A stretch of 64,000 nucleotides of DNA, taken from positions 13,738,983 through 13,802,982 of the forward strand of contig NC_087077.1 in NCBI RefSeq assembly GCF_026151205.1. The letters are read 5' to 3'. Shown piece after piece: positions 3,249 to 61,982 of this stretch; positions within the stretch are counted from its first letter, which is position 1, and each line of letters begins with the position of its first letter. Made by a program: the position numbers and the translations under genes. This DNA is from Bolinopsis microptera (Eukaryota > Ctenophora > Tentaculata > Lobata > Bolinopsidae). Under the pieces are notes generated by a model. That model did no database searches. It saw only the letters and a program-made list of their open reading frames with translations, and had not been told where the DNA came from.

Positions 3249-3832
3249 GTCGTATTGGTTCAGTGAGGTTAACCCTTTGAATGTACTGATTATGTATGAA
3301 TACTGATGAAGTGCAAAAGCAAATGTTAGACCGTTCTTGCCATTTTCATGAAAGTCTGGTAAGATATTGAAAAGAATGTGTTGTCGGACTATATTACCCT
3401 GTAGAAAGCTATTGGAAATGCTTATAGTTATAATACGAGTTACAAGATGTTCTACATTATACAGAGCACTAAAATCTACAATAGCAACTGTTATGTGGAG
3501 TTATTAATGGAGCACACATAGTTAGAATATCACATATTCCTGCAGGTAAGATATGCGCTGTCGAACGAAGTTTTAAAATGTCCGAATACCAACTTTGTAC
3601 TCGAATGAATGCAGCAATCTTAGTCTGCCTACGATAGTTATTTCTAATTGCAGCCTGATCTAATTATAAACTTCGAGTCCTGTTTTTACTATATTTTATT
3701 CGATTAACTGTGCTAACTGCTATCACCTTGACGTATACTGTTGGGTCGAATACCTGAGTTATTTACACAGCAAGTGCGGACCGTTTTCAGTTCTTTTAAA
3801 ATAGACCGCTATATAGGGCCACTATGTTGATT
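3249..3832. other. Spacer between two minisatellites
   Basis: AT-rich single-copy-looking DNA with no supported gene. Confidence 0.5.
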
Positions 3833-4486: not shown

Positions 4487-4983
4487 GTTGGGCCGTTTAG
4501 TAAAGTCGCTAAATCAGTAAATAGATGAGTGGTCATAGATAAGAATCCCGTAGGTGGAGTCCCCCAGCATAGCAAACCTGTGTTAAATTTGTTAATTTTA
4601 AAAATCCTATAGAATGAACAATTAAAATAACGTCAATGCTAAATTGTAAGCTAAACAATTATATAAGCATAATCTTTAGATTCCAGCCGCTGTTTGATAA
4701 GTGTGTCAGAAAGAACTCCTAAATGAGATCATTCCTTTCTTCAGACCCCCCAGCTGCATTCTCCCCTGTCTTACCTTCTTTTATTCAGGGTTTGTTAAAC
4801 TAATTAGCGAGACGGCCAGGTTGAATGAGACACGTGATAATTGGGCTAGAATAATGGAAACTCAATATTAATGAACCTCCAGTAGCAAAATTATTGAAAA
4901 TTTTTATCCTCAGCAGATGGCTAGAAACCTTGACATCTGCAACATACAAAAATTGTAACAAATTTCTCGCAAAATCTAGAAAC
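4487..4983. other. 5' flank of the ZP-domain gene
   Basis: AT-rich upstream region. A 70-codon minus-strand ORF at 4800-5012 overlaps the promoter and shows no domain, so it is not annotated. Confidence 0.4.
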
Positions 4984-4995
4984 GTATTTAAATAC
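4984..4995 (+). promoter_or_regulatory. TATA-like element of the LamG-ZP gene
   Basis: GTATTTAAATAC lies about 75 bases upstream of the ATG at 5066. A TATA box here would place the start site near 5015-5020 and give a 5' UTR of about 45-50 bases. This is inferred from spacing only. Confidence 0.4.
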
Positions 4996-5065
4996 CCCTG
5001 CTCTCGGCTCATTATTTATCAAAGAACTTTACAATAAGCAGTTAATTCGGAGACTTTTCCAGACC

Positions 5066-11714: not shown

Positions 11715-11804
11715 TGTTGTGATTTATTTATTAACCATTTATCATTGTTAGGCATGTAGACAAATTTCCAGTTATCGCAAGAGTTGTCTCACTTGTTCAG
11801 AACA
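11715..11804 (+). repeat. 5' LTR (90 bp)
   Basis: It begins TGTTG and ends AACA, and is preceded by target duplication CGTAG. The gag reading frame is already open inside it. Confidence 0.85.
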
Positions 11805-17580: not shown

Positions 17581-20500
17581 ATGGCTGACAACAGCAACTC
17601 ATCTATTGATAATGAGATTAGAGGTGAGAGTCTGCTTCCATGATACTTCTGAACTTTGGAGTTAAAACGATTATTTCAAAATGCCTTCTGTACCGATTTG
17701 TAGGTTCAATCATGGGCGTAGCAAATTGAACATGGAATGTTAACTGAATATTTTCCCCCTTGTAAACATTTATTTATTGATAATAAATACTTACTTGCAG
17801 CACCAAAAAGACAATGCCGGCGAAGACAGCTGGAGTCATTTAACCGTTCTGACAAGTTGAAGGAAGCTCTGCAGGTGTTTTGGCGGGAAATGAAAGACGT
17901 TATTAAGGAGGAGGGCTTCAGTTATTCCACCACATTCCTTCACAGGTATAGTTTTTGTTTGGGGCTGGCTTTTACACCAGTCAATGTTTACTCAAAATAT
18001 ATAATAATTGTAATAATCAATATTAATCCCCGAAGGGCACGCAAATTACATGCCATCGAACTCATAGCTATTTCGTCTAGATTTTATCAGTTTATTCTGA
18101 TGACCCTGATCTGCAAACACATTTAAAAGCTTAAACGTTTATATAAAATTCTTTACTTGATAATACTGTCGTAGGTGTTTTATCAGTATAGGTTTGCGCT
18201 AGTTGGCAGTGAAATATGGAATGTGCTGTCAGGATGGCACGATAAGTGATTTAGATGGACACTGATAATAGTGAAAGTTGAGCTGCATATGTTAGGTTGA
18301 TATCTAGTTTACTTATCTAAGGTTATTCTCGGTAGTTGATTTGTTGAGTGCCTGATCTTGCTGATTTACGTAGCCCGGGTAAATTATGTAACAGAAAAGT
18401 TGGCCATTCTTCATCGTTTCCTGAGCTTTGTAGTTCTATCATTACACGCTTTGCTGATTTCTTATAAATGCTTATTGAGAAAATGCTAGATGGGCAAGTT
18501 ATGCGACTAATGTTGTGCTCGGTAATAGCTAATATAGGACCTTTATACAGAACACTAGCGCGTAGATCTGGTTGAGAGTACGTTGTTAGCCAGTCGATAT
18601 TGTCGTCATAAGATGTGCCATACTTTGGTAAATCGGGAGGAAATAAGTCTTTTATCGACGACGGCAGAAGGCCAGGCATGTAATTTAACTTGTGCATCAG
18701 AGTCAGAGCATTTTTTATGATTACCCCGTGTACAGTTAATATTTCGTACTCTTTAAACGTAGCTTTAGTATGATCCGGAAGTTTACCATCTTTGTAATAG
18801 TAATTCACGTAACCCGGCATAACTGCTCGTATTCCTTGTTTTTGTTTAGTGAACAGTGAGTCAATGTGAGATTTTGCAGCAAAACCCCAAACGAGCGAAC
18901 AGAAATTTAAGTGAGATTGTACAAAACTTTGGAAAATCTGTAAGCGTGCTTTGATTGGTAATTTGCGTTTTATTTTGAACATAACACCTATAAACCGTGA
19001 CATTTTTGTTTTGACAGCTCGAATGTGGCTGGCCCAGTTTAGTTTGTCGTCGACAATAACTCCTAAAAATCTGGCCTCCGTTTTGCGTTCAATAGGAGTG
19101 TTGTCAATTTTTACCTGTAGAGACGATAAGTCTACCCGTCTTTTTGAAAATACCATATAGCAAGTCTTCTTTAAATTAAGAGCTAAGCCGTTTGAGTAAA
19201 CCCATTTTATCAACAGATCAGTGAGGTGGTCGATTTTGGATTCAATTTCTTGTATATTTGATCCGGTGATAATTATATTTGCGTCGTCTGCGTATAATAT
19301 AAATTTAGCTAAGTTACTGATTCCTGGTAAGTCATTGATATATATAACGAAAAGCAGGGGGCCTAATATGCTACCTTGTGGAACACCGTATACCATAGAT
19401 TCTAATGATGAATTGGAGCCGTTCAAGGAGACAAATTGACTGCGACCATTAAGGTATGACTCGAACCATTTCAAGGCAATGCCGCGAATACCGTAATGCT
19501 CAAGTTTCCTGAGTAATGTCGCGTGATCTAGGACGTCAAATGCCTTACTATAGTCTAAAAGTAATAGTAGTGTTATTTGGTTCTTATTTAGGGAATGCAG
19601 AATGGAGCTCTGAGCATTGAGAAGCGCATGCTCGCATGATCTTCCTGGTCGGAATCCGTATTGATTCTCGAATAGTGAGTTATTCTTGTCGAGAAATTCT
19701 AGTACCCGCCTGTGCATGAGTTTTTCGTAAATTTTAGAGAACGAGCCCAAAAGCGAGATAGGTCTATAATTTGCTACGTCGAGTTTGGAACCTCCTTTGT
19801 GTATAGGTGTAACTTTTGCGGTTTTCAGAGCTTTAGGGAAAGTTCCCTCTGCAAAAGATGTGTTGACTACTGATGCAAAGGTACATACAAAATTTTGGCA
19901 TGTGCTAGCTACTTTCAAAGGCTCAATTTTTGAATCGAGAGTTGCCTTATTTTTGAGGCCAATAATAATTCTATGTATCTCGGTAGGTGTCGCAGGTTCA
20001 AGGTAGATAGACGTTGGACATGACCCGGTCAGATAGTCCTGGAACCCCCCAGGATCGAAGGTCTGTCGGGAACTGATCTGAGACTTGATGTTGGCTGCGA
20101 TGCTGGAAAAGTAGCCATTAAACTTTTCAGCGACAGCCGAGTTAGTACTCAGGATCGTCCCGTCAGTATCCCTCAATCTAATCTGATCAGATCCCCGTCT
20201 TTTTCTGTTTAGCAGGCCGTTGATTATCTCCCATTGTTTTTTGGAACAGTCCTGATATTTTTCAAATTGTTTTTTGTAATATCGCTCCTTGGCAAGATTA
20301 ACGTGTTTACTGCAAAATAATTTCATTTTATCGTATGCGGCTATGTTTTCATAAGTAGGCTCAGTGATATTCAGATGATATAACTGCTGTTTACGAGAGC
20401 AGGCCGTTTCGAGCCATGGAAGTATCCACGGCTTCGGATCAGACCGTTCATTTTCGCGACGACTACGATTGCTCTTAACGGGGTATGCAGTGTTGTAATG

Positions 20501-23500
20501 TTTCATGTAGATTTCTGAGAATTTATCATACTGTTCATTTGCACAGCCTGATTCCCGCGCTTCCTCCCACGTCTCCCCTTCCAATAGCTCCTTGAAGATG
20601 GCATTGTTGGCTTCGTTAATAGTACGTGTTTGACGATATTTTGTGGTATTAGTCCTATTCGAGTGTGTGGTGTGCTTTTGTGATACTGCACGTAGCTTTA
20701 TAGTGGTTAGAGTTGCAAGATGATCAGAGATGTCGAGTGTTAGAACGTTACTACTTAATGTGTTTTCAATATTATTTGTGTAAACATGGTCAATAAGGGT
20801 GGCACTGTGGTCAGTGACTCGTGTTGGTTTGGAAACTGTTTGAGCAAAACCATATTTTGCCAGTGTATCAATGAGGTTCTGGCTTGAGGAATCAGTGTCA
20901 TATTTGATAAGATCAACATTTGCATCGCCAAAAAACATAACGTGTTTGCGTGAGTGTCTATCTAGTCTATTGAGTACGTGATCGAGTAAGCTAATGAAAT
21001 TATTAGTATCTCTTGACGGTGATCTGTAGAAATTTACTATTACCTTCGTTTTGTTAAGACCTTTGCAGTTATGAATTTTGACTAGTTGAAACTCGCCACT
21101 CATATCTTCAGGATCCAGAGCTAAGTCAATACGTTCAATTTTCTCGAAATCGCACACGCGTTTGTTTATATAGATTGCTAACCCACCTCCTCTCCCCGAT
21201 TTCCTCACAGGTGCTTGTATAACAGGTTCGTGAAAACCCTCGATCATAATATCATCAGTACCATTAGGCAGCTTGTTAATGTTACAGTTAGTTTCATTAA
21301 AGCATAATACATCGCATTTTGAGAAGGTGTGGATTTCTTCTCTGAGATATGTTATGTTTTTTGCTAGTGATCGTATATTTAATGAAAGTGCTTTTAACTC
21401 GTCTTTGGCGGAGTTTGTAACGTTTTTAGGTTCTTGATATTTGCACTTGGTTAAGATTTCGCTTATTTCATTCCAGTATTCGTTGTTTGTGTCACTGTTC
21501 TGATCTAAACTATTGCCAATGGAATTTATTACGTGCGAGCGATCATATGGATTGAAACTAAGACGTGATGCGTTAAGGTGGTCGAACTTATCATAGAGAT
21601 CGAATGTATCTACATTGTAACCAGGAATAATTGATTCGCAACATCTGATGCAACCTAAAGTTTCCTGGAAACATTTCTTGTGCACAGGGCCCTCGCACCA
21701 TGCACAAGTACGCAGGTTAGACTTAGAGTAACACCAACCCGGACAGGCCGTGCATTTGATTTTTATTTTTTGAGTATTGCTGACTTCACCATTAGTGTTC
21801 ATGAAGTTGATAAATAAAGCTGATAAAATTCCGTTATGATTTGGTTAGTCAAAAGAAAAATGTATATGATAAATGTATATTGCTATAATTAATAATTATA
21901 TATATGAAAGTCAGACCTGCTTCGCGAAAACTAACAGTTTTGTGTGCTAACAGATCCTGACTGATATTCTAACTAACTAATAATCTAAACTAATCCAAAC
22001 TATCTATTTTAAAAATAAAATTAAAAAAAAATTTAAAAAAACTAACTAACTAGCAAGCGAGTATGCTCGGAGAGCAAGTAGCTTATACTGAAACTGTGAT
22101 GAAACGTGTAGCTTTAACTTTAATGTAGCTTAACTTCAACTGTACGAAATTGACTTTTGCGAGGACAACGGAATGTGGATCAGTCAAAAGAGTAATACGG
22201 TGGAGTCATGTTTGTCTAGTAGTAAAGCAGAAGTTAGTCAAACGTCAAAAGTTAGGTGTATTGTCACTGAAATTTATTGATTTCTGTATTAGTACAATAT
22301 AGTAAAATGTGAAATGTGCTATGGGCAATGTATTTTATTGTGTAGATAGTGTATCAAAATTTCGATTTTAAGTGTTTAAGTGTTTATTACCAATAATGTT
22401 ACATAGGGGACTGTAATTACTGATTAGGATAACTGATAAGCTTTATTTAGATTACTGATAAGACGGGTTATAGTATGAAAGGTGTGAGCGTGTAACTTGT
22501 TAAGATACGACTTGTTTTAAGGTTTTAAATTTGCCGTGCTACGTTGACTTGGTTTGAAATATGTTTGCAGATCAGTCTTTTTGTTTAGTATTGGTATTGA
22601 CAATAGTTTTATTTATTCAATTCTCATCCGAAACCGAAACCGAAACTGTTCATATAGTCATAGTATAAATCTAAAAATGGACGTCTTAGGGGTAATGATC
22701 CTTTACGAAACCCTAGGCTTATTAGAATAGAGTCTACCCAGCATGCAGTTACTATAGATTTCCCAGTGTTGTTTAGGTGAAGGCCATCTCGTGCGAGGTG
22801 AGGTAGACCAAAATACAGGTTGTCAAACAGGTGAAAATTGGCCGAACGTAGAGAAAGGTGGAGTAGCAGTTCGTTCAGGTTATCAATTCTGTCGTTCAGC
22901 TCAAAATAGGGGTCTGCACTCAGGTTAAGAGGTGTGATAGCGTCAAAAATGAATTCCGTTTTGAATTTACTTGTGAAATGCTTTAGGTGGTTGTGCAAAG
23001 TCATGGGATCAGCTCGACCGTATCTGAGATCATTCACTCCGGCACTGATCAGGACTAGATCGGACTGTTCAATTAAGGCTTGGTGTTGAGCTAAGTCCCT
23101 CAGATGGAATAGGTCTTCTCTGAATGCGATGATCGGCTCTTTGAGAAGTGAACAGTCAAAGGTGCGATTCTTAGAGTCAGACAAAATGAGAACTCGCAGA
23201 TGTCGTTGCGGGGTTTGGTGATCCTCATGGTGCGGAGATGACAGACCTGGTGACATTAAGCGTCCTTGGTGTCGTCTGTTCCTCTTGTTTGGTCCGGGGT
23301 CCTCTATAGTATTTGCAGATTAATTAATTGTGACAGTTTGTGCTATGGACATAGTTGAGAGTTGTAGAGTACATGGTTTGCTTATTTGAGATTATTTTAT
23401 AATTAATAGACAATGGTATTTACAGTATTACTACCCGGGGACTTCAGGCTTAGGTGTTTAAAAACATCGAGAACATGTGACATGGTGGAGTGACAGGCTT

Positions 23501-47344: not shown

Positions 47345-50300
47345 CTACAATAACCCAATGTTAGCAACTCTTTGTCTCACATCATTCACACTCATATCAC
47401 ACTTACCCTGGCTGTTCCTGCCGTAGAACTTCCACTCATACTGAGACGGGTCATAGTCCACACTAGCCCTGTCACTAGTGACATTAAACATCACCAACCC
47501 ACTTGATGGTCCTAATGGTTTGACTGATATTATGGCGATGTGTAATTCCTCTTTGAAATCCAATTTCTGATTGAAAGTGTTGTTTATCTCCTCGAATTTT
47601 ACTTCTACCAACGATGGAGGAATGGTAAGTGATCCGTTGGTTCGCTTTAGAATTTCTTTATCAGTCATGATGTCATCGATAAGAAGGTTAATATCGTCAC
47701 TCATCTTTCTGTCAAGCTTTAATCCCATAATAGTCCCTTTTTCGTCTGGCACGACTCCAACAAAAATATCTCCTCCTTTGTGGTTCAACATTGAAATCAA
47801 TTCTTTAGCTATCTCATTCTGTAGCGAGCATTGTTCGCATGCTGCACAAACGCACATTTCTCGCCCATGTAAATCTTGTAATTCCTCAGTTCCTCACCTT
47901 GACTGAACTTCTGTTTAAAGTCGGGTATTGCTCCTGGATTGTAAGGAGGTCGTACTCTGGGAGCTGAAGATACGAGTGGAAGTGACGAGCTATTATTGGG
48001 AGTCTCAGCTTTCTCTTCAGATATCTCATATCCCTTGAACACCTCCCTGGCAATGTCTACAAAATGTGCTTTAATCACTTCATCCTTTTGGTGTTCACTG
48101 AATATCTTCATAATGAGGCCCATCCCTGGGCCCTCTGCCAACTTTTGAACAACCTTCAAGTTCTTCCCCACTACAGTCATGTAAAACAACATAACAGGGC
48201 GCATCACGTCTGCACACTCCATATACTGGCCCACGTGCGCTGTGACAGGGTCGAGGAGTGCGCGGCCCGATCTGCCTGTCCGCAGCAGCGTTAGCTAGCA
48301 CGTAGAGCACGTGTCGTGCAGTGTCTAGATCGTGAGAATTGTAGAGAAGAGAGAGGAGGAGAGTCTGGTGGGCGGGATTAGAGAACGCTGCTGTTGCAAA
48401 GGTCAAGTTCTGAGTTATTCTGTGGAGCACTTTTAGGCTTCCTGGGAGGGGGATTGTTTAAAACGGTTAAGAAATTTTAAAATATCTTTAATATAAATTC
48501 GCATTTTTGACTCACTAAGACATCTTTATTTAAAATTTGTGCGATTGGAAGCTAACCTAAAATGAGAGCTTTGTCGTTTGATTCCGTGGGGATAACATCA
48601 GCTAGTTTGCAAAGACAAGCGATATTGTAATCGTGACTTTTACCTAGCACCCTCCTTTTCTGGTAAATATCCTTCTTGGGCACGGTACAAGTCCATCCAA
48701 AGTCAATAGCGAGCACTTCGGCTGGTTCACCTCCTAATGCTGTGGATCCTGAGTGAATATTGCAATGTGTGAACAATTTTTGTTTACAAAATATGGCGAA
48801 AAAGTGACTGTTTTATTACAATTTGTTGTTTTGTTTTATTTTTCAGCAAATTGATAACGGCAATTATATTTATGCCAATTCGTGCCGTGCTGCATGTTAT
48901 TCATAACATACACAAACAAACTTTGAGGATGAAAAACACCAATACTTTCTGGGAACATGACATAATATTATGAATGTTCAAAATTATCAAAAGTTAACAA
49001 AACAATCATTTCACTAAATCAGTTTTTAAAAAGAACACCTTCATTTGAACTTTTGAAAATACTTAGTATAACTAGTACCTACATTCGTAAAAAAACAAAA
49101 CAACTTCAAAATTTCAGAGGAATCTCACAATCATTATTTAGAAATCTTCCATAACTTTTAATAACTAATAAGGTTTCATAATAATATGATAATGCTTCCA
49201 TTGCTCCAGCAGCAATTTACTTAAATATTCAACATAATAGAACTACATCATAATATTATTATCACAATCTACATCGTCGTCGAAAGAACTAGCTCCTGAT
49301 TCACCGTCTTTTCTTCTTTTTCTTCTTTTTTTTCTTTTTCCTTTTTATTTTGTTCGATTTATCGTCTTGTAGCTGTTTTTTTAGCGCCATAGTCTCGGAG
49401 GGATTTTGAGGGGTTTCGAATTCAATAATTCTACATACGTCACGACGCTGTTTTAACTCCTCTATAAGTTGTTCGTCATATTTACAAATATTCGTTGCAT
49501 TATAATCACGCATGATCGCTGCTGAGTACACTCTGGCTCGTGAGATTCCACTGTAAAGATTTGGAATAATATTACTGAGTGTAAACTTATTCTCACTTTC
49601 ATCAGGTGCGTATCTTATTGATGGTGTGCATGTGTGGATATAGATAATAGCTGGCCACTCTGCAGACGTAGAATTCGCATTCCACATCATCATAATCTCG
49701 TTATCTTTCTCATTCCACATACTTAATACGCTGGTTACAGTAATCTGTGTATGTTCATGTTGATCTATACCTGCATAGATTATCACTGCGATATCCTTGT
49801 TTTCAAGATAACTGTCAGGCCCTTTTACTTTCTCCAGCTCTTTAACAAGGATTTCTTTCCATGTAGCTGTATTATCATCGGTCAATAGGTAGATTACAGG
49901 TTTACTAGCACGGAGAAAATGACCTATATCCTGTTTTTGATTGCGGTTTACAGGGATATTCTCACTAATATCCATTATCTCATCGTGTTCTTTGATTATA
50001 GACAGCACAGAAGAAATCTCGTAAGCGTTCCTTAGATTAACAGATAAATCTAAGTTAGCGAAGCAACGTTTAAATTCTTCTCTATTGAGGTTGAATTTAA
50101 ATGGATACTTTTGAAACTTAACGTTTGTATACGATTGAAGTTCGTCACAGAATACCCAAATACTAGTATTATTGGAATCACTTTTCTTCACAACATGAAA
50201 TAATCCATCAGATATGATATTTTCACCCGCACAGCCAGCTAACCTTGCATAATTTAGATCAGAGCCTGTACGATTGACGAGAAGCTGATAATCGTCTACA

Positions 50301-52159
50301 AAAATGTAATCAAATTTCCGTAGAAAACTCTGTGTATCTTTAGCTAAACCTTTCCCGACAATTAGTAATACGATTTTACTAGTACAGACTGTCATTTGGT
50401 ATGATAAAATACAGTCTACTACAAACTGATTATACTTGACAATATAATCCTTTTTGTGTTCGTTACTGTATTCGTACGTAATCATCTCGCACTTAACAGT
50501 ATCATTTATATCGTTAAGTATTTCTAATTGACGCACCGCGGCGGGAAACCTTTTAGGCATCAACGATCCAGTTAGAATAACAAGTATTCTCTCCTCTGGA
50601 GGTGTGGTTAAAGCAAGATCTATAACTTTACCCAACATTACTATGGTTTTCCCTGAGCCAGCAGGGCCCTCCACCCAGAGAAACCTCTCATCACTTTGGA
50701 AAGCATCAAGTTGATCTTTTGTAAGACTGTTTATCTTTAAGTAGTCTTTAAAAAGTTGCGGCGCATCAACCATTTCAGGATTATAGGGATACTTCTTAAT
50801 CTTTCCTTTCCATTTTCCCTTTTTTGGGTACTCCTCTGATTTTGCTTCATCGACTAGTTTTCGTGTTATTAACGCATATCTCAGTTTTTCATCTACATCT
50901 TTCAAACATTTAGGGAAGCTACAGCTATTGAAATCCCATTTATTTTCCAGGTTTATACACCACAATCCTAGAAGGCAGCAACGTGATCCGTCCATTACAC
51001 TTACAGTTCCCAAAGAGCTCCTTTCTTCACAAGAGTCGACTATCGAAACCAAGTTCATGAGATCATTACTGAAAAGGATTGTTTCATCACAGAGATATGA
51101 CTCGTCTACCTCATCCTTGGAAATATTCGGGAAGACTGTGAACTCGAATATCATGACAGAAGGTTCTATAGATTTGATGAAATCTTTCGTCCTTTTCCTT
51201 TGTGTGAGAGCGCTATCGCAACAACCCTTAAACTTAATATTGTCTTCGTTTGTTTGCTGCAGAGATAGTCCTTTAACTTCAAACACAGCCACATAATGAT
51301 CTCCCATAACGACAAAGTCGCACTCTCCTTCAATTTCTCTCGCCTTTTTATGACACAGATGTTTTTCTGGTCCTTTCTTGCACTTTTTGGTGTTACAATG
51401 ATGCTCTGGGAGAAATACAGAATATTGTTCGTGAGTATACTCTAACTGATGAACAACTAGATGATTTCCTTTTGTCTCCTCAAAATACCGATACAGTTCT
51501 ACTTCTGCTACATAGCCGTCCTGATGTTTTTTTTCTTGTACATTAGCCCCCTCTAACGAATCTTTGGGAGTTTATCAAAAAACTTGGAATTGGGTATTGG
51601 AGGAATCATTATTGGACTTGAAAACTCATCTCCCCTCGAACAGTGTTTTTCCAGAATTTTCCTGCCGATGACATATTCAATTTTCTTCCGGAGTCAGACT
51701 TGAACTCATAACCTAATAAGGATTCGAAACTAAAACAAAAAACGATTATGAAAACACGAATTTGCCATTTTAGAACTTTGGATGAATCTAAATTGTTAAA
51801 AATTGCAAGTCAGCCGAAATGAGTTACATCTATTCTAGCCCAAGAGAGGTTTAAATTATACCAATTAATTAGAAGCAACAGGATGAGCCATTGTCAGTTT
51901 GTCACATACATTGTATGCTTATAAAAGGACGGTATCTGAACTTTTGAGGGCGCACAAAGGCAAAAAACTGCAAGATGAATATCAAAAATATGTAGCATTG
52001 CCATTGACATTCCATGGAACTACTGCACTGGTAAATTAGATGAAGAAAGGATGAAGAAACTTGGTCTTGCGAACTGAAATGAGGATTGAGGGTGATGTTT
52101 AATTGGGTGATAACTTAGCTTACTAGTTTACTAGCTTACTAGCTTACTAGCTTACTAGC

Positions 52160-52194
<35 letters not shown>

Positions 52195-52316
52195 ATATTC
52201 CTACTTTATCTTACTTTATTCTACGTTGGCCCCAAAAGTACTTGTAGATTAAGGTAGATAAAAGTATAATGTTCATCCATTTTCTTTTGCGAATTCTACT
52301 CTACCTTTATTCTACT

Positions 52317-52381
<65 letters not shown>

Positions 52382-55300
52382 TAGCTTACTACTAGGTAAG
52401 TTAAAGTGAATTCAGCTCAAGTAGAATGCGATGGAAGTGGTGAATGAACTGAAACAATCTGGAATCGTAAAAGGATAATTAATACACACGCGGTAAACAA
52501 ATATTTGCAGCCATTACAAAACTTTGAACTTATTTTAACTTCAAACGAATGTATCGCACAAACACAATTCAAAAGGGAGAGCCTTCAACATACAACACGA
52601 ACGTGATGTACAAAAGTATATAAAAATAATTATTCCATATATAGGAAAAACATAACAAAACAATTTTGAAGCATCCATATTAATATAATGACATTTCTGC
52701 CGTTTTCTGACAAAAGTGCTTAAGTAACACAAGGTTCATTTTGTGCAAATTGACTTGAAAGATTTCAATTCTGTAATTGCTCTGGGCTAGCTGCTGTCAA
52801 ATTTAGACTGCACCCACTATGTTTCTAAGGTGCTTTGTCGACTTTTGATACTAATGACAAGGTTTCATCTAGGCTCACTTTCATCATCCTAACTTCTCGG
52901 AAAGTGCCTCAAAATCAAAAATTATAGTTTGAATTTCATAGAAAAGTGCTAAAGTACAGCCACATCGGCAAAAACTCCACATGCACATTCTTATGAAAAT
53001 TACCCGTTCAAACCATTGGTCATCGAAAATAAAACGAAAAATTAGCCTTAAACTGTTGTGATGAAACACGATGAGGACACGCTGAAATAAAAAATTTCGT
53101 TTTCTGAGAAAAGTGCATACACCAAACCTGTCCAACCCGAATGACCTCATAGGCAGTTCAGTGACCATCTAGCGCACCGTTTCCACATAAAACAAATCAT
53201 TTTGAGAATACCCATTTTTGTAATCGAGCATTTCCTGGTTAGAGTGGAATTTTCGGAAAAACACAATTTGTTTCATGGAGAGGCTATAAGTTAATCATTT
53301 CTTGCGGTATCGGGTTGAAATTTTGCTGGCCGTTTATTCACATCTATTTCAAGGTGTGTGTAAAATCTTGATATCGTGTCTAAAAAGGCTGGTGTGTTAT
53401 AAATTTGTAAAGTCAGAAAGCTAAAATTGTCCTTTTCAGGCTTATTTTAACAAAAAGTCAGTCAGGGAAGATCGGATTGATTTGATGCTTGACATCAAAT
53501 TGTTCTCTGAATTCTGGCGCAGTTTTCGATGCCCTCAAAAATGTTTTTACTTATTTATCTTCAGATCTATTGGACCTCAAAGCCAAACAACAAGTTTGGG
53601 CACATTTTTCGTTTGAAAAATCAGTAAATATTAAAAACGAAAAATGTACCTAAATTTGTTGTTTGGCTTTGAGGTCCAATAGATCTGAAGATAAATGACT
53701 AAATGAGAAAAAACATTTTTGAGGGCATCGAAAACTGCGCCAGAATTCAGAGAACAATTTGATGTCAAGCATCAAATCAATCCGATCTTCCCTGACTGAC
53801 TTTTTGTTAAAATAAGCCTGAAAAGGACAATTTTAGCTTTCTGACTTTAAAAATTTATAACACACCAGCCTTTTTAGACACGATATCAAGATTTTACACA
53901 CACCTTGAAATAGATGTGAATAAACGGCCAGCAAAATTTCAACCCGATACAGCAAGAAATGATTAACTTATAGCCTCTCCATGAAACAAATTGTGTTTTT
54001 CCGAAAATTCCACTCTAACCAGGAAATGCTCGATTACAAAAATGGGTATTCTCAAAATAAATTTTTCTGATGTGGAAACGGTGCGCTAGATGGTAACTGA
54101 ACTGCCTATGAGGTCATTTGGGCTGGACGGCACTAACCACTGTTTTGGTGTATGCCCCCTAAAGTGCACCAACATTAGTGGGAACTTTATCTGCGATCAT
54201 TCAGACGTAAAATTTTACGACAAATTGATTGGTGACGGTTTAAGAACACCAAAACACTCCCTTCTCCCAAGCGGATTAAAAAATAGTGGCAACGAGCGGG
54301 AATAAACGTTGCAATTCCTTATAAAATTTTGTTTTCGAATCGGAATTACTAGCTTACTACTAGGTTACAAGTTAAATTGAATTCAAGTAGGATGCGATGG
54401 AAGTGGTGAATGAACTAAAACAATATGGAATCGTAAAAGGATAATTAATACACACGTGGTAAACAAATATAGTTAAAAATATTTGCAGCCGTTACAAAAC
54501 AAAACAAAAACAACAACTAGCCCCACAACGAAGCACAAGACGTAATGTAATAGATATCTGAGTACTAATGATATAATGATGTAATGTAAATACACCGGAG
54601 GGTATGTGAGTATATATTATTTTATGAGTAATATGATGAACATTGAGCATCGTTATAAGCTTAGAAGTTCGAATATTTAATATTTATGCATGTGTCTGAT
54701 AACGGATAAAACCTTTTATAGTTTCCAGCTACTCCAGATTCCTTTATGTGGCTATAACATTACCGGCAATAGGATTAACGGTTTTTGAAAGATAAATCCG
54801 ACGACTGTACTGCCGTTTTCTGACAAAAGTGCTTAAAGTAACACAAGGTTCATTTTGTGCAAATTGACTTAAAGATTTCAATTCTGTAATTGCTCTGGGC
54901 TAACTGCTGTCAAATTTAAACTGCACCCACTATGTTTCTAAAATGCTTTGTCGACTTTTGAAGTTTTGAGACAAGGTTTCATCATCCTAACTTCTCGGAA
55001 AGTGCCTCAAAATCACAAATTATAATTTGAATTTCTTAGAAAAGTGCTTAAGTATAATAACAGCCACATCGGCAAAAACTCCACGTTCTGATGAAAATGA
55101 CCCGTTCAAACCATTGGTCATCGAAAACTCGAAAATAAGACGAAGAATTAGCCTTAAACTGTTGTGATGAAACACTAGTTGTAATATTGGGAGACGCTGA
55201 AATAAAAAATTTTAAAATTTCGTTTTCTGAGAAAAGTACTTAAGTGCACCAACATTAGTGGGAACTTTATCTGCGATCATTCTGAACTAAAATTTTACGA

Positions 55301-58300
55301 CAAATTGATTGGTGATGGTTTAAGAACACAAAAACACTCCCTTCTCCCCAGCGGATTAAAAAATAGTGGCAACGAGCGGGAATAAAACGTTGCAATTCCT
55401 TATATAAATTTGTTTTCAAATCGGAATTCTACCAGTATTTTGACGCTTGTTTTGACGAAGAGTCGATTGGTGATAGTACGGGATAATAATAACTTAATAA
55501 ATAAGTTTCTTTCTTTAGATATTAAATTAAGAACTAAATTAAGGCCAAGGTTTTGCGAATTATCTATATTATATTTTAAACTTGACGAATTCCCCCCGGC
55601 CCCGGCAACGGGGACAAAACACTGAAAATTTACCTAAAAATGACCCTCTGGCGTGACCAATTTCAGCTCGCAAATGGAGTTGAAACATCGCTATTTTTAG
55701 CAGAATTGTAAAAAAAGGATTATAGGAATAGCCTATAGCATTCTTAGAATTTTGATTAAGGCTTAATATTTTCTATAATTAACGTCGGAAGTGAGGTAAA
55801 ATAAACGTTAGAATAATGGCGTTATTTTAGCAAAGGTAAACAGCGTCGTTGCTTAGCAACATCAAGAGATTGCACGTGCACGAGCTAGAACAGATTAGCG
55901 CGTTGTCACTTGTCATGCTCTATGATACGTCATAACTAGCTCACATTACAATTTACGCTATGACTATCCATAACTTTGGCTGTGATTAATGTTTTTTGAT
56001 GCAGTAAAAGTATCGATTAGGGAAAACTTAAATAAAACCTTTATCGTTATCGGCAAATAAAAATCCATACGCCGAGCTAGATCGTAGATAGATAGATGAT
56101 AACAAGAAACTATAACATAACTGATTTTAAATTTCCTTGAATAAAGCGTTCAGCTAGCGGATGTACAGGTTTGAGGAAGCCTATGAGCTAGGCAAGCGGA
56201 TAACTAAAACTTAGTGTTTACCATGTTATAAGGCACAACACTCATTCTCGAAAAAAGCTTTAAAATCGTACAAGAAAAATGTATTGTCAGGAACAGGTTG
56301 TAATAATACGGAATATTGAATCCGTCCCTTTGATCACGAATCAATACGAACAAAAAGGTAGATTGAAAACAGCGTGAATATGAGGTATATAAGATGAGCT
56401 ATAGAAATGAATAGATATGTTTCGCTCTATAGCTTGTTGAGTATTACATGCGATGAGCTATTCTTACTTTATATCGCAAGATCCAATCATGTCCTAACAT
56501 TCCCTACTCAAAGTCAATATCCCATTCACTATAATTGATAAGCTAAGGTACACGAAACGTGTGTGAACAATGTTGCGTTATCCAGCTATTGTCGTACGGA
56601 GTACCTACAGCTTTACACGTCACGAGGCACACTGTTCCTACTCAAGTATTGTATCCTACAAATCTTCTCTCCAGATACTATTTATTCAGGCAATACTACC
56701 GAGAATATATCTATTTATATTTAAAACTTAACGAAAAAATCGGGGCTCATAAGTCTACAAAGTTTTAAAACTATATCTTTCTTTTTATCGCTTGCTAATC
56801 CCGTGTGATTGATTTTGTGATTGATTTTGTGGGAAAGCTATGATTATACCTAACCGGATCAATCTCTCTTCTTTCTGCCGCAGAAATGGAGCAGAACAGA
56901 AGGAAACCTCGTTCTGCTCTGATTTCCATTCCATTTGGACCGAGCCACGCTGAAACCTGATAACCTCCACCTTCTCGAGCAGTGGTCTTTCTGTTTTGCA
57001 GCGGTTGCTTGTCCAATATGACCTTATAGGCCAAAAATGAAAGTCCGAACAGGCCATAGAAACAGCGGTACCCACCTTTTCCACTGCACCACCAAAGTCC
57101 TCAAGTCATAATTGATGATTATGTAGCTGTCCGCACTGTTTGATGAACAGTTCCACTTTATGGTGGAACGAGTCAGCGCTTATGAACGTATGGCCTGGCT
57201 CCAGATATTTCACGGTTATCGTGTCAAGCCCGAGGTCAGGGCTGTTTATGGCGAACATAACGCAGTGAAAAGCGTCCAGCATTTGTTCTGAGCGGAACAA
57301 TTGTCTGCCCACAGAATTTTTTCCCGGCTTTCACCATTTCTTCCTTCAGCATAATACCTTATAGCTTTGACCCAGGTTGAAGATACGTTCTCATCTTTCC
57401 TCCCAGCAATAGCAATTTGCTTCATTTTAGGTCAGACAAGCTAAAAATCTGCAGTCTCAACTGATTAGAGAATACAAATTTTAAAGCAAATTAATCAGAA
57501 TCAACATTTAATTATAAAAGTATATGGCACTTAAGCACTTTTGTGAGAAAACGAGCTCGTTTTCACAAAAGTGCTTAAGTGCAATAAATTGTTTTTTCCA
57601 GGTCAAAGGACCCACGATCACCAAATTGCCGTCACTAGGCCAGTTTTGGACGTAGAAAACAATGACACCATTTTTTGTATTTTAGGGGGTTCCAAAAAGG
57701 GGGTTTCGGGGGGTCGGCGAATGTATCCAATGGTCCTCAGGGATAGTTCTTGACCCAAAAACAAAAGTTAGACCAAAAAACCCGAAATTTCCAAAATGTT
57801 ACTTAAGCACTTTTGTCAGAAAACGGCAGTGTACAGGTTGTTATCATCGGAGGGAACGTGAACAGCAAAATAAGTTTAATTTGATATGTAATGATCGAAA
57901 TTGTAACATTAAAGTCGCAGAGAAGTTTTGCCAAAATAAACTAAACTTTTACAATCAATTAATGATAGTTGAGTGTTGTCACGGCCACGGGTCTTAACAG
58001 TTTTGCTTACTTACTCCACTGTGTTTAGTGTTCAGAATTTTCGATTATTCCGTAAATACGACCTAGGGAAACTACTCTTTTCAAAGGTAAAGGTAACTGT
58101 GCGAAGTTTCAACGTAACTACATCATATTCATGATGTCTGAAATTATTTGTCATACAGTAGTATTAAAAGCATTAAAACTCTTACAAAATAATAAATTAC
58201 TATGATTAACAATAAAACTGCTCACCCTCAAGAATCCTAGCTCTGAAAGTGAACCCAGTCACCGAGAGTCTCACTATTACATCCTCGTCTGTGTAATCGC

Positions 58301-60104
58301 TTGGCAGGGGCATCAGCTCAAAGCTGGGCTTGTTCAACTCTTGTTGGATCTTGTCTAACGTGCCCCAGTCCTCTTCAAACTGTATCCACACATATTGTGG
58401 TGATATCACCTGGCTTATCTGATGGAACATTGAGATATTATCACCTAAATTGTCTGATAGAACATCGAAACTTGATATTTTGTCGAATCTGGAATGTAAT
58501 TTTTCGTAAAATATAAGAATGTACGCAATGTTGCAGAATGTATTTTTAAACACAGTCCTCTCACCCGGCAAGTGTCTAAGATAGCATCAGTGTGTAGTGA
58601 GTCTGGACTGTAAGATCTAAAGTGCGGAACTGAGCAGATGTTGTGAGAAAACAGCAGTTCTGATACCAGCATGTTACCTGAAATTAGAGACAAGATGCAA
58701 CTAGACTGGAGAAATGTTACATGAAACACGACTTATATTGAGAAATAAACCAGGATTCCAGGAAAAGCTAAGGTTCCAGGAAAAGCTAGGATTCCAGGAA
58801 AAGCTAGGAATCGGGCAGTTCTGAGACGTAACCAGTTAACTTCATGTCTACAAGATAAGAGCAAAGAACAGTGTAGCCTTTTTACCATGTTCAGTAGTCA
58901 GCACCACCTCAAGTAACTCCCCGTATCTCGTCTTTTTATTCGATATCTTCTTTCTCAGCATCTGAGCGTAATATACTGTGTTATTCAACATGTAGAAACA
59001 TTCACAGAACATATAAAAACAGGAACTTTAATGAACTAATTTAGGGAAAATAGTATTGCCTCGTTTTTTGATGAGTTTTAAATGAAGCCTTTAGAAATAA
59101 GTTTAAATAATACTAGAAGCGGGAAGAAGTACAACCCTGATAAAATTGTTCTACTTTTAAATATAAATAAATGTAAAAAGGGGTTAAAATTAACCCTCCC
59201 CCAGCCTTCCTCTGTTTCATACCCCGAATGTGTTCCCAGAAAGGTGCTGGTGAGCAGTTGCAGTTTGTTGTTTGGACCAGGTGGTGGTCAGGTTGTCAAG
59301 GCAACAGTACACGTGCTTGTTCTTAGCGTCCACTAGATCCAACAGTCTGCTTAGTTCCTCTGAAAAAACTCTCGTTTTAGATGAGATCTGTGAGCGGGTA
59401 TTTCCTTCAACTTGTCATCATAATTTATTGCCCAATTAGACAAATTTATCGCCGCAATCATTCTAGAACTTAGGAAGTCAGTGCTTGCTTTTTACGTTAA
59501 AAGTTAAATCATAAAACGCATTTCGGTCAAGATCTCAGCAATGTGTTATGAATAGGTAAAACTGATATAACTATAAGTATAACACACCGGTATGGATGAT
59601 ATTGAGACTAAGAAACATCACAGTATCATGCTCCAGTACCATATCCAGGATACGGAGACACACCACATGGAGCTGGAACTTAAGAGAGCCGGAGTTCCTG
59701 ACATAGGTCAGTGTGTGCCCGTCATCTGACCTAGTGTAGTTCCACACCGCCTTCAGTAGGTCGCAGAATTCTCTTGTTAACAACTGGGGAGGGGAGGGGT
59801 TACGTTTCTAAATGACATTATTTTGAAATTATAATCTTTAATTTTGTAATAAAACCTCATTGAGGATAAAGTGAAAGTACGCGGTAATACGCACACGTAC
59901 AATGTACATTGTAATTTAAGATAATCAGCAGAAACATACCTCACGAATAACGTCAGGTCTCTTCATAAACTCTAACAAACCCCTCAATATCTCGAGCCGA
60001 GTTCGAGCATTAGGCCGGACAATCAACAACTTCTTGGAGTACTCTCGGAGTGCGTGGAGCATGTTACCTTCGGTACATGAAGCAAAGCAATCAGTCAGCA
60101 TCAT
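47345..60104 (-). CDS. Tudor-ARM-Schlafen (AlbA_2) protein, at least eight exons, with a 9.5-kb intron
   Basis: Minus-strand exons: A 59940-60104 (start uncertain, possibly further 5'), B 59588-59783, C 59223-59359, D 58886-about 59030, E 58565-58677, F 58226-58488, G 48557-48748, H 47345-48441. A-E are helical, HEAT/ARM-like (REYSKKLLIVRPNARTRLEI, LHVVCLRILDMVLEHD). F and G share an extended Tudor domain: YVWIQFEEDWGTLDKIQQEL, then GFTFRARILEG before the intron and AEVLAIDFGWTCTVPKKDIY after it. G-H continue with ARM-like repeats (LHRITQNLTFATAAF, ARHVLYVLANAA, IKAHFVDIAREVFKG). The C-terminus is a Schlafen AlbA_2-type fold (ISMLNHKGGDIFVGVVPDEK). Phases agree at A/B, B/C, D/E, F/G and G/H; C/D and E/F are unresolved. 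Exon H has two one-base frame changes, near 48265 and 47830. Tudor domains bind methylarginine of germline RNP proteins, and Schlafen folds bind or cut RNA, so an RNP/small-RNA role is inferred. Confidence 0.65.
48749..49300. other. Intron sequence 3' of the nested helicase gene
   Basis: AT-rich, no feature beyond the intron of the Tudor gene. Confidence 0.4.
49301..51709 (-). CDS. NERD-like nuclease plus superfamily 1 helicase, nested in the Tudor-gene intron
   Basis: A 668-codon frame (49301-51307) extends upstream without stop to about 51570 and, across one-base frame changes near 51565 and 51690, to an ATG at 51709 (MSSSLTPEE). Domains in order: a PD-(D/E)xK/NERD-type core (GECDFVVMGDHYVAVFEVKG, catalytic D...ExK) with a nearby CNTKKCKKGPEKHLC cluster; the helicase Walker A VEGPAGSGKTIVM; Walker B YIFVDDYQ; CDELQ and a late NLYSGISRARVYS (motif VI-like Arg). 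The tail is almost pure Lys/Arg (KIKRKKKKKKKKKKRR), a likely nuclear signal. NERD-helicase pairings occur in prokaryotic defence proteins and Schlafen C-terminal helicases are related, but the function here is inferred. No introns seen. Same strand as its host gene. Confidence 0.75.
52162..52380. mobile_element. Second insertion bounded by poly-G (32) and poly-C (62), 7-bp target duplication
   Basis: G32 at 52162-52193, a 125-base core with CTACTTTATCTTACTTTATTC and CTCTACCTTTATTCTACTTG blocks, then C62 at 52319-52380. CTAGCTT flanks both sides (52155-52161 and 52381-52387). It interrupts a short CTTACTAG tandem repeat. No ORF. The plan matches 7254-7914 but the cores differ. Confidence 0.75.
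52697..54345 (+). mobile_element. Truncated left end of the CTGCCGTTTTCTGAC transposon, copy 1
   Basis: Starts CTGCCGTTTTCTGACAAAAG and matches 54810-55430, including TTCAATTCTGTAATTGCTCT and TAGTGGGAACTTTATCTGCG. It lacks the right half and transposase and is split at 53115-54155 by the foldback element. Confidence 0.8.
53115..54155. mobile_element. 1.04-kb foldback (palindromic) element
   Basis: Arms of about 500 bases (53115-53614 and 53635-54155) are near-perfect inverse copies around a 20-base spacer. The ends are GCATACACCAAA and TTTGGTGTATGC. The right arm has about 20 extra bases near 54130. The mirrored ORFs at 52884-53168 and 54090-54305 (MVTELPMRSFGLD) are just the two arms. It inserted into transposon copy 1. 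Confidence 0.88.
54810..57829. mobile_element. 3.0-kb DNA transposon with TGTA target duplication, copy 2
   Basis: Terminal inverted repeats CTGCCGTTTTCTGACAAAAG (54810) and CTTTTGTCAGAAAACGGCAG (ending 57829), with similarity to about 32 bases. TGTA flanks both sides (54806-54809 and 57830-57833). The motif AAAAGTGCTTAAGT recurs inside near 55035, 55228, 57530 and 57565, as subterminal repeats that a transposase might bind. A degenerate transposase lies on the minus strand near the right end. It sits in the large intron of the Tudor gene. Confidence 0.85.
56785..57425 (-). pseudogene. Decayed transposase-like gene
   Basis: From ATG 57425 the frame has ILWADNCSAQNKCWTLFTAL; one frame change later ITVKYLEPGHTFISADSFHH appears. 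These two blocks characterise a transposon-borne RNase H-like protein family frequent in cnidarian and mollusc genomes (usual form W-x-DNCxAQNKNW and K-x-EPGHT-x-M-SADSFH). Downstream sequence to 56785 needs several frame changes (SYWTSNRCKTERPLLEKV). The N-terminal half of the protein is absent, so it cannot act. Confidence 0.75.
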
Positions 60105-60799: not shown

Positions 60800-61834
60800 T
60801 CACCCCAAAATAAATTCGTCGGATAAAACATACGGTCCAGTTAGTTCACGATCAACAGACTTCAGCACCACAATCTCATCTCCAACCTTCACCTTACCTG
60901 GTCGCAACACCTTCCAGTAACTTCCAAAACAAGCCCTGTTTCGTGTATCCCTGAACGGTCCATGTTTAAAGACAGTGTCATACACCTTGGTGTCCATTTC
61001 ACCTTTAAAAGCATTGATAACCCCACATCTAGGACTCATGAACGTTTGCTCCAACTCCAGCTGATCCCCAATTCTGACAACTTTCCAGAGGTTCTCTGCC
61101 CCAGCCTCACATCCAGTAACCACCACACTCGGTCTGAACCTTTCCATTTCCACTGCAGTACCTGCCTCCGCGTTCATCCTGTCCAACGTGCTCACGGAAG
61201 TTATAAGAACAGGAGGTATTGCTGCTGGTTTCTTATTTGGTGCTCTGTACACAGGGAAGTTGTGTTCACCTGATAGTTTTCTATCTGGTACATAGAGTAG
61301 GGTTACTGGTTGTCCACCAAGAACAGCAGTCATCCAATTGCCAGCCTCCTCACCAGCGTTTATATACTCCCTGTCATCGGAGAGCAGATCATCATTGAAC
61401 TTCAACCCAAAGATTCGTTCTCCAGACACAATTTCACGCAGGCACAAGATCAAATCATCGTGTCCTTGACAGGAGATGCACATCTTCTCACAAGAGGGAT
61501 CAGTAAAGGTGCATGATATGCTGGTTAACTTGCTTCCCAGCTTTGTATTCCCATAAAGCCGAGCTATTTCAGGGTTTTTAACATACACAGCCAGACGTTT
61601 GTTGTGCTTGAGGCCGACTGTTGTAACGTCCCATGATTCTACGGATAGCATCTTTGTTGTTCTGATCGGAGCAACATTTACTTTACTGACGATACCAACA
61701 ATTTCTTGTTTGTCATGATGGAGGTATCTCTGCACTGTTTCGATGACTGCCAAGGTACCATTCATTGCCACGATAGGAATGAAAAGCAATGATTTAATAT
61801 GATTTTCAAGAAACTGGATCGTAGTTTCTGTCAT
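60800..61834 (-). CDS. MOSC/mARC-like molybdenum-cofactor protein (344 aa, single exon)
   Basis: ATG at 61832-61834; the frame is open further upstream only through an AAC repeat without an ATG. A hydrophobic N-terminal segment (IKSLLFIPIVAMNGTLAVIE) could anchor the protein as in mARC. Next is a MOSC_N beta-barrel-like region (about 50-190) with an unusual CEKMCISC cysteine group. The MOSC domain (about 200-340) has DRMNAEAGTAVEMERFRPSV, ENLWKVVRIGD and SPRCGVINAF, whose Cys at about residue 270 is positioned like the Mo-binding Cys of mARC. ACFGSYWKVLRPGKVKVGD closes the domain. mARC enzymes reduce N-hydroxylated compounds; the activity here is inferred. A paralogue follows in tandem at 63808. 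Confidence 0.85.
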   Translation of the reverse strand: MTETTIQFLENHIKSLLFIPIVAMNGTLAVIETVQRYLHHDKQEIVGIVSKVNVAPIRTTKMLSVESWDVTTVGLKHNKRLAVYVKNPEIARLYGNTKLGSKLTSISCTFTDPSCEKMCISCQGHDDLILCLREIVSGERIFGLKFNDDLLSDDREYINAGEEAGNWMTAVLGGQPVTLLYVPDRKLSGEHNFPVYRAPNKKPAAIPPVLITSVSTLDRMNAEAGTAVEMERFRPSVVVTGCEAGAENLWKVVRIGDQLELEQTFMSPRCGVINAFKGEMDTKVYDTVFKHGPFRDTRNRACFGSYWKVLRPGKVKVGDEIVVLKSVDRELTGPYVLSDEFILG

Positions 61835-61982
61835 GTTGTACACAGAGTTTCTGGAAACAAAGAATTGGTATGTTGTAGAACAATTATTGTTATTGTTGAA
61901 CAATTATTGTTATTGTTGAACAATTGAGGTCAAAATGAAAAGTTTTTATTGTTGGACAATTCTAATTGTTGATCAATAGTAC

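What the first reader, a model, noticed from the sequence alone, without database searches (positions are those of the whole stretch)
47345..60104. A single gene joining Tudor, ARM-like and Schlafen (AlbA_2) domains
Exons F (58226-58488) and G (48557-48748) are 9.5 kb apart, yet both are phase 1 at the junction. Joined, they restore one extended Tudor domain (TFRARIL then VLAIDFGWTCTV). Downstream exons add ARM-like repeats and a Schlafen-type AlbA_2 domain. Known biology: in C. elegans the PUCH enzyme that cleaves piRNA precursors is made of Schlafen-like-domain proteins (TOFU-1, TOFU-2, SLFL-3) and meets PETISCO, which has an extended Tudor subunit (TOFU-6). Finding both modules in one animal polypeptide is, to my knowledge, undescribed and suggests a fused piRNA or RNP-processing factor.
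Basis: partly seen in the sequence, partly recalled or inferred. Interest (0 to 1): 0.78.

Follow-up and report, generated by a model that had tools for sequence, protein, structure and literature searches.

The report
Comb-jelly gene fusing Tudor and Schlafen
This comb-jelly (ctenophore) genome has a gene, with an intronless sister gene, that joins a Tudor domain and a Schlafen-type domain in one protein; these are two parts that work together as separate proteins in the worm small-RNA machinery, but what the joined protein does is not known.

Summary
The architecture holds, with corrections. On the minus strand, 60104-47345, eight exons in matching phase encode ARM-like / Tudor / ARM-like / Schlafen AlbA_2. 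Joining F and G lifts the Tudor score above Pfam's cut-off. Independent of splicing, the same genome holds an intronless 763-codon sister gene (contigs C105, C15), colinear at 21-22% identity, with both domains above cut-off in one open frame; its two copies differ almost only silently. The 9.5-kb F-G intron contains a separate NERD-helicase-like gene and inverted repeats.
Corrections: exon F starts at 58409 or 58418, not 58488, and exon H as assembled is broken by two frame shifts (assembly error or lesion, unresolved). The organism is a ctenophore, probably Bolinopsis.
The piRNA/PUCH reading is only partly supported: the AlbA_2 domains lack the canonical E-x4-E-F-K element, the Tudor cage is altered in both genes, and the genome has Zucchini/PLD6-like genes, which C. 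elegans lacks. Best guess: a non-catalytic Schlafen-Tudor adaptor of RNP granules, perhaps partnering the motif-complete SLFNL1-like protein on C10. Searches of open-access papers found no such fusion; other animal genomes could not be searched.

The parts
59940..60104 (-). Exon A (165 nt), possible start codon, helical ARM-like N-terminal region
   Evidence: ATG at 60104, donor GTATGT. The spliced alignment starts only at 59999 and ended this exon at 59952 instead of 59940; the start codon is not tested
59588..59783 (-). Exon B (196 nt), ARM-like region
   Evidence: CAG/GT borders, phase 0 in; donor recovered by the spliced alignment, which began the exon at 59807 instead of 59783
59223..59359 (-). 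Exon C (137 nt), ARM-like region
   Evidence: borders, same; second-best of 8 tblastn hits of the sister ORF in the whole window (59336-59226, E 0.12)
58886..58961 (-). Exon D (76 nt)
   Evidence: borders; same borders in the spliced alignment of the trimmed region
58565..58677 (-). Exon E (113 nt), leads into the first strand of the Tudor domain
   Evidence: borders
58226..58409 (-). Exon F (184 nt), first half of the Tudor domain; start corrected from 58488 (58418 also possible, and is what chose)
   Evidence: Tudor 18.5 bits, profile 11-74; phase test; gapless alignment to the sister protein across E/F at 58409
48749..58225 (-). Intron F-G, 9,477 nt, phase 1
   Evidence: GT/AG and phase; the trimmed-region alignment used an acceptor 9 nt further on (48740); holds the NERD-helicase ORF and inverted repeats
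48557..48748 (-). Exon G (192 nt), second half of the Tudor domain
   Evidence: Tudor 13.0 bits, profile 77-106; best of 8 tblastn hits of the sister ORF in the window (48716-48591, E 0.07)
47345..48441 (-). Exon H (1,097 nt): ARM-like region then AlbA_2 domain; two frame breaks
   Evidence: three overlapping open frames 48457-48095, 48294-47809, 47893-47345; breaks placed by the spliced alignment at 48283 and 47813 (which in some settings adds short introns or a third break at 47990)
47522..47821 (-). Schlafen AlbA_2 domain (Pfam match)
   Evidence: PF04326 29.4 bits, cut-off 25.3; found as C6:13786504-13786803 in the whole-genome search
49301..51571 (-). Separate intronless ORF (756 codons, weak NERD nuclease and SF1 helicase matches) inside the F-G intron, not part of the fused protein
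   Evidence: Pfam matches all below cut-off; one of a dispersed family

Best explanation
It is one gene of a small ctenophore family with the order ARM-like / Tudor / ARM-like / Schlafen AlbA_2. SHOWN: the architecture, in the window gene by exon joining (with two unresolved frame breaks) and in an intronless sister gene as one open frame whose two copies differ almost only silently. INFERRED: the ARM-like repeats and the cage-altered Tudor domain act as protein-binding surfaces, and the AlbA_2 domain is a non-catalytic Schlafen fold that binds nucleic acid or pairs with a catalytic Schlafen partner, as non-catalytic TOFU-1 pairs with TOFU-2 in PUCH. The natural partner in this genome is the stand-alone SLFNL1-like protein on C10, which keeps the E-x4-E-F-K element. 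The fused protein would thus tether a Schlafen nuclease or RNA to Tudor-type RNP granules. I put the architecture at about 0.93, a non-catalytic RNP/nucleic-acid adaptor role at about 0.45, and pairing with the C10 protein at about 0.2.
For: Architecture. Sister ORFs on C105 and C15 differ at 35 of 2,292 nt, 32 at third codon positions, 3 amino-acid changes; dN 0.0017, dS 0.067. Tudor identity: a profile of both genes matches one PDB sequence up to E 10, 4q5w 'Maternal protein tudor', E 0.0089, across F and G. AlbA_2 identity: Pfam; the profile that includes the C10 protein matches SAMD9, SLFN11, SLFN5, SLFN14, SLFN12. Degenerate active site: the C10 protein matches Pfam positions 1-117 with ESKTVEFK at positions 1-8, while the fused domains match only from position 8-9 (sister) or 14-19 (window). 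Altered cage: A-I-D-F-G-W and A-I-D-Y-G-W in the two fused genes, against YYLDYGN, YYLDFGN, LFVDYGN in three of five other Tudor exons of the same genome that I read (of 23 matches). PUCH facts (catalytic residues found in TOFU-2 but not TOFU-1; TOFU-1 binds the TOFU-6 eTudor, whose cage is degenerate): passages of PMC10567574.
Against: No expression, interaction or structure data. Both AlphaFold jobs gave unusable models (single sequences, mean pLDDT 31.1 and 38.7). An ungapped extension leaves an acidic residue (E in the window, D in the sister) at the second Glu position, so loss of catalysis is not proven. With only the two fused domains as query, the sole PDB match under E 0.01 is SAMD9, and SLFN12 is at E 0.95, level with unrelated hits; the single window sequence matches no Schlafen (3 unrelated hits up to E 10), and the Tudor part alone one unrelated hit. 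The other two of the five control Tudor exons also deviate from a perfect cage (HLDFGT, KLVDYGE). The C105 and C15 copies may be alleles, so the selection signal covers a short time. SLFNL1 is reported as dispensable for spermatogenesis (passage of PMC10567574), which gives the C10 partner no proven role. The window copy has two frame breaks.
Confidence: 0.5

Rival explanations
1. The window copy is a decaying gene (pseudogene): the family is real, but this member has lost its reading frame in exon H and would make only an ARM-Tudor-ARM fragment.
For: Two frame breaks within the 1.1-kb exon H; the genome search showed no second copy of this gene to check against.
Against: No in-frame stop in joined exons A-G and all seven introns keep GT and AG. 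2 of 4 long single-exon iGluR genes examined show the same kind of break with no room for an intron (L015, L016), so indel errors in the assembly are plausible. The AlbA_2 part still aligns to the sister at 25%.
Confidence: 0.35
2. Two separate genes (A-F and G-H) happen to lie on the same strand, and the Tudor domain is not restored by splicing.
For: 9,477-nt intron with another open frame on the same strand inside. A spliced alignment over the full 13 kb wandered through this intron and did not pick exon G in any of the settings tried.
Against: The sister gene has both halves in one open frame. The halves match adjacent parts of the Tudor profile, 11-74 and 77-106, and share phase 1. On the region without the intron interior the sister aligns through F-G-H at score 296 against a maximum of 169 in 30 shuffles.
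Confidence: 0.04
3. The fused protein is itself a piRNA 5'-end nuclease, a one-chain counterpart of PUCH plus PETISCO.
For: Same two module types that meet in C. elegans (PMC10567574, passages); Piwi-domain genes present.
Against: No E-x4-E-F-K element in either fused gene; the third acid site differs (PDEKG in the window, TYQG in the sister). Zucchini/PLD6-like ORFs are present at four of eight PLDc_2 places, two of them read and one tested against the PDB, whereas C. elegans lacks Zucchini (PMC10567574).
Confidence: 0.06
4. It is an innate-immunity nucleic-acid sensor or restriction factor, closer to SAMD9 or mammalian Schlafens than to the germline pathway.
For: SAMD9 is the best PDB match of both AlbA_2 profiles.
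Against: Pfam lists no NTPase or helicase part in either protein; Tudor domains of this extended type are mostly germline RNP parts (recalled).
Confidence: 0.25

Closest known systems
PUCH (TOFU-1, TOFU-2, SLFL-3/4) with PETISCO subunit TOFU-6, C. elegans
   Same: Schlafen-like fold and extended Tudor domain brought together; one Schlafen subunit (TOFU-1) shows no catalytic residues and TOFU-6 has a degenerate aromatic cage (passages of PMC10567574)
   Different: Separate proteins in the worm, joined here in one chain with ARM-like repeats; no canonical catalytic element here; this genome keeps Zucchini-like genes
SLFNL1 (Schlafen-like 1)
   Same: Single C-terminal Schlafen fold (passage of PMC10567574); the C10 protein of this genome has a stand-alone AlbA_2 match in the exon read
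   Different: No Tudor domain known; no Tudor match on C10 (a search that misses Tudors split over exons, the window's own included)
SAMD9 AlbA_2 domain
   Same: Best PDB sequence match of the fused AlbA_2 domains, E 0.0018
   Different: SAMD9 is a large multi-domain protein without Tudor (recalled)
Drosophila Tudor / TDRD extended Tudor proteins
   Same: Tudor domain in an extended context, PDB match 4q5w
   Different: None known to me carries AlbA_2; cage residues replaced by A and W here
ZYG11B / ZER1 armadillo domain
   Same: Weak profile match of the region after the Tudor domain
   Different: Pfam lists no leucine-rich repeats or VHL box here

Membership tests
Tudor domain (PF00567) | Profile score above the curated cut-off (23 bits) | tested here: met
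   29.5 bits in the joined model, 24.3 in the intronless sister
Tudor domain (PF00567) | Aromatic cage for dimethyl-arginine (Y-R, Y/F-x-D-Y/F-G-N) | tested here: not met
   F-R and A-I-D-F/Y-G-W in both fused genes; three of five Tudor exons read from the same genome show the canonical pattern, two do not; cage positions recalled
Extended Tudor (eTudor) | Tudor core flanked by a split SN-like domain | tested here: inconclusive
   PDB match 4q5w covers profile columns 7-96, which includes the N-terminal flank; C-terminal part not matched; no usable model
Schlafen AlbA_2 (PF04326) | Profile score above the curated cut-off (25.3 bits) | tested here: met
   29.4 bits, 27.2 in the model and 30.1 in the sister
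Schlafen nuclease | Acidic triad with E-x4-E near the N-terminus of the fold (spacing recalled) | tested here: not met
   Present in the C10 protein (ESKTVEFK); corresponding positions in the sister read NIETSDFV by ungapped extension; the profile match starts at position 8 or later in both fused genes. One acidic residue remains at the second site
PUCH | Trimer of single-Schlafen-fold proteins that cuts capped piRNA precursors | not testable with these tools
   Needs biochemistry
PUCH | Works in an animal without Zucchini (a circumstance, not a strict definition) | tested here: not met
   Zucchini/PLD6-like ORFs of 235-236 codons at C1 (2) and C6 (2); best PDB match of the one tested is 4ggj, mitochondrial cardiolipin hydrolase, E 3.9e-26
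PETISCO TOFU-6 | RRM next to the eTudor domain (recalled) | tested here: not met
   Pfam lists no RRM in either fused protein at E up to 5 (its filters drop most weak matches)
Armadillo repeats | Repeat profile above cut-off | tested here: inconclusive
   Pfam below cut-off (HEAT_ULK4 12.2, ZER1-like 15.5 bits); PDB profile match 4d4e E 3.4e-4 for the region after Tudor only

The most novel reading that the evidence does not exclude
The fusion is a 'Rosetta stone': an ancient Schlafen-Tudor partnership in small-RNA or RNP control, known to me so far only as the transient PUCH-PETISCO contact in nematodes, exists as one polypeptide in comb jellies, where the fused non-catalytic Schlafen lobe pairs with a catalytic SLFNL1-like protein to make a Tudor-tethered ribonuclease beside Zucchini.
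Probability: 0.15. Interest if true: 0.85.

Novelty: new variant of a known kind. Interest (0 to 1): 0.55.

Why it matters
[quoted passage not shown] If functional, the fusion suggests that the Schlafen-Tudor link is older than nematodes, or arose twice, and gives a concrete protein with which to test what stand-alone Schlafen-like genes such as testis-enriched SLFNL1 do.

Tried and rejected
Considered and rejected: (1) a 56-nt intron in exon H (47897-47842) in place of the second frame break: it would remove a stretch that aligns without gaps to the sister protein, and the trimmed-region alignment used a frame break, not this intron. (2) A short intron at the first break: looked for by eye in the sequence, no donor in the needed phase. 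(3) The 756-codon ORF in the F-G intron as part of the fused gene: it belongs to a dispersed intronless family and would interrupt the Tudor domain. (4) C10 AlbA_2 genes as further fusions: no Tudor match on C10, though that search also misses the window's own split Tudor.

Led nowhere: spliced alignment of the sister protein over the whole 13 kb wandered through the big intron in every setting (one; three; three). Its scores still beat shuffles where shuffles were run (315 against at most 223 in 20; 213 against 112 and 434 against 351 in 20 each), but the path is not the gene. Only the run without the intron interior is informative (257 and 296; 30 shuffles for the second setting, maximum 169, mean 105); it too adds a few doubtful short introns and, in one setting, a third break. 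tblastn of the sister ORF on the window gave 8 hits at E 0.07-9: the best three are G, C and F in the right strand and order; of the other five, one lies just past the end of H, one in the E-F intron, three elsewhere; the reversed protein gave none. Two single-sequence AlphaFold jobs gave unusable models, so no fold search was run. No COX1 match in the assembly. Single-sequence PDB searches of the AlbA_2 and Tudor parts gave only unrelated hits, and the C10 protein none at E 0.01. NCBIfam gave nothing relevant for the fused sister protein. A first iGluR search did not settle the organism.

Full report
WHAT IS THERE. The window lies on contig C6 of a 264.7-Mb assembly in 232 contigs. On the minus strand, eight exons (60104-59940, 59783-59588, 59359-59223, 58961-58886, 58677-58565, 58409-58226, 48748-48557, 48441-47345) are bounded by GT and AG and match in phase at 7 of 7 junctions. 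The start codon at 60104 was not tested against any relative.

TUDOR. The frame with exon F alone matches PF00567 at profile positions 11-74 with 18.5 bits, the frame with exon G alone at 77-106 with 13.0 bits, both under the cut-off of 23. Joined, the score is 29.5. A profile made from this gene and its sister finds one PDB sequence up to E 10, 'Maternal protein tudor' (4q5w, E 0.0089), aligned over F and G. The single sequence finds only an unrelated hit.

SCHLAFEN. The AlbA_2 domain passes Pfam's cut-off (29.4 bits for the exon's last frame). In the whole genome PF04326 has five matches: two on C10, one each on C15 and C105, and this one. A profile of window, sister and C10 sequences finds SAMD9 (E 1.2e-4), SLFN11, SLFN5, SLFN14 and SLFN12 (E 0.006-0.07). 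With the two fused sequences only, SAMD9 7ksp remains (E 0.0018) and SLFN12 drops to E 0.95, level with unrelated hits. The single sequence finds no Schlafen.

THE SISTER GENE. Searching the genome with the joined model gave, besides the gene itself, one HSP each on C105 (E 1.6e-18) and C15 (E 6.6e-18), both spanning residues 35-661 inside one open frame of 763 codons. That frame holds Tudor (24.3 bits) and AlbA_2 (30.1 bits), both over their cut-offs. BLASTP aligns the two proteins colinearly from model residue 36 to 717 at 21% identity (E 5e-24). The two copies, perhaps alleles, differ at 35 of 2,292 nt, 32 of them at third positions, with 3 amino-acid changes; dN 0.0017, dS 0.067, while the flanks that align (234 of 692 nt upstream, all of 1,016 downstream) differ by about 6-9%, gaps included. 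If the intronless gene is a retrocopy, its parent mRNA carried all domains in one transcript; this direction is inference.

THE LONG INTRON. It holds a 756-codon open frame on the same strand with NERD, UvrD, ResIII and P-loop matches, all below cut-off. This ORF belongs to a dispersed intronless family: 96 matches (itself included) from 60 scored of 265 candidates, the best-scoring other copy 54% identical, partial matches up to 65%. The intron also holds inverted repeats with 367-nt arms, 98% complementary. Insertions thus plausibly explain the 9.5 kb.

FRAME BREAKS. Exon H is read in three successive frames, with breaks that the spliced alignment places at 48283 and 47813. The sister aligns through both. 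Two of the four long iGluR genes I looked at (L014-L017) have similar breaks with no room for an intron (L015, L016), so assembly indels are plausible, but a recent lesion in this copy cannot be excluded.

ARM-LIKE REPEATS. No Pfam repeat passes its cut-off. A two-sequence profile of the region after the Tudor domain matches 'Armadillo repeat protein ARM00016' (4d4e, E 3.4e-4), 5mfb (E 5.5e-4; recalled as a designed armadillo protein) and ZYG11B (E 0.03). The N-terminal region has only a weak HEAT match (12.2 bits).

THE ORGANISM. An iGluR ligand-binding piece has as best PDB matches ML032222a (E 4e-34) and then 4zdm (E 4.5e-24), with NMDA receptors at E 1e-16 (best 60 of 359 shown). I recall these two as Mnemiopsis and Pleurobrachia, both ctenophores; the output gives no species. 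Contigs C2, C5, C6, C9 and C10 have 17-24 Mb, C13 at least 15.9 Mb, and C15 only 167.5 kb. Bolinopsis microptera has 13 chromosome-scale scaffolds (PMC10232365, passages) and 265 Mb (PMC11797021, passages). I infer a lobate ctenophore, most likely Bolinopsis.

FUNCTION. The C10 protein carries ESKTVEFK at Pfam positions 1-8; the fused domains match only from position 8 on, with NIETSDFV at the corresponding place in the sister and, by ungapped alignment, KIYMGEKC in the window. One acidic residue remains at the second Glu position. That E-x4-E is the Schlafen active-site spacing is recalled. The Tudor cage reads A-I-D-F/Y-G-W in both fused genes, against YYLDYGN, YYLDFGN and LFVDYGN in three of five other Tudor exons of this genome; the other two read HLDFGT and KLVDYGE (five read of 23 matches). 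The genome has Piwi-domain genes (19 exon matches, Piwi and Argonaute not separated) and Zucchini/PLD6-like ORFs at four of eight PLDc_2 places (two read); the one tested has mitochondrial cardiolipin hydrolase 4ggj (recalled as mouse Zucchini) as best PDB match. In C. elegans, which lacks Zucchini, TOFU-1, without catalytic residues, pairs with catalytic TOFU-2 and binds the degenerate-cage eTudor of TOFU-6 (PMC10567574, passages). The most economical reading is a non-catalytic adaptor of RNP granules; pairing with the C10 protein is a guess that can be tested. In Mnemiopsis, Piwi and Tudor genes have been reported (PMC4971632, passages); that paper does not mention Schlafen.

NOVELTY. Searches of the open-access library for Schlafen with Tudor, armadillo, PUCH, fusion, ctenophore, metazoan Piwi, for SLFNL1 with piRNA, and for AlbA_2 with Tudor, listed no paper that describes such a fusion in title or abstract start; of the listed papers I read passages of PMC10567574 only. 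Subscription papers and database annotations were not searched, and no other animal genome could be searched, so 'undescribed' is limited to that. Known domains in an order new to me: a new variant of a known kind.

Noticed in passing
window 49301-51571 (-): 756-codon intronless ORF with weak NERD nuclease and SF1 helicase matches; a dispersed family in this genome (96 matches, itself included, from 60 of 265 candidates scored; 21 of the 96 with stops inside).
   Followed up: partly
window 53130-54128: Nearly perfect inverted repeat (367-nt arms, 98%), plus diverged direct repeats, inside the F-G intron; looks like a DNA-transposon or palindromic insertion.
   Followed up: partly
G000 C1:24414979, C1:24420669, C6:20097364, C6:20434266: Zucchini/PLD6-like open frames of 235-236 codons at four places, in two pairs; two of them read, one tested.
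   Followed up: partly
L011:5282-5974 (C10:284344) and C10:634964: Two copies, about 95% identical over 3.3 kb, of an AlbA_2 (SLFNL1-like) gene; the one read has the E-x4-E-F-K element.
   Followed up: partly
L015 and L016 (C6:2375156, C12:11809015): Long single-exon iGluR genes interrupted by a frame break with no room for an intron; suggests residual indels in the assembly.
   Followed up: partly
window 4934-6537 (+): Pentraxin/laminin-G-like domain frame followed by a frame with ZP-N and ZP-C domains (Pfam 105.8 bits).
   Followed up: no
window 18323-21844 (-): LINE-type open frame of 1173 codons with endonuclease and reverse transcriptase domains.
   Followed up: no
window 11760-13715 (+): LTR-retrotransposon type frame: zinc knuckle, aspartyl protease and a partial reverse transcriptase match.
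   Followed up: no
window 2541-3280 (+): Tandem repeat open in three overlapping forward frames (units like GSRWQHMDQGGNIWIKVATY).
   Followed up: no
window 60800-61903 (-): 367-codon open frame with a MOSC domain (mARC-like, recalled), about 700 nt upstream of the fused gene, same strand.
   Followed up: no
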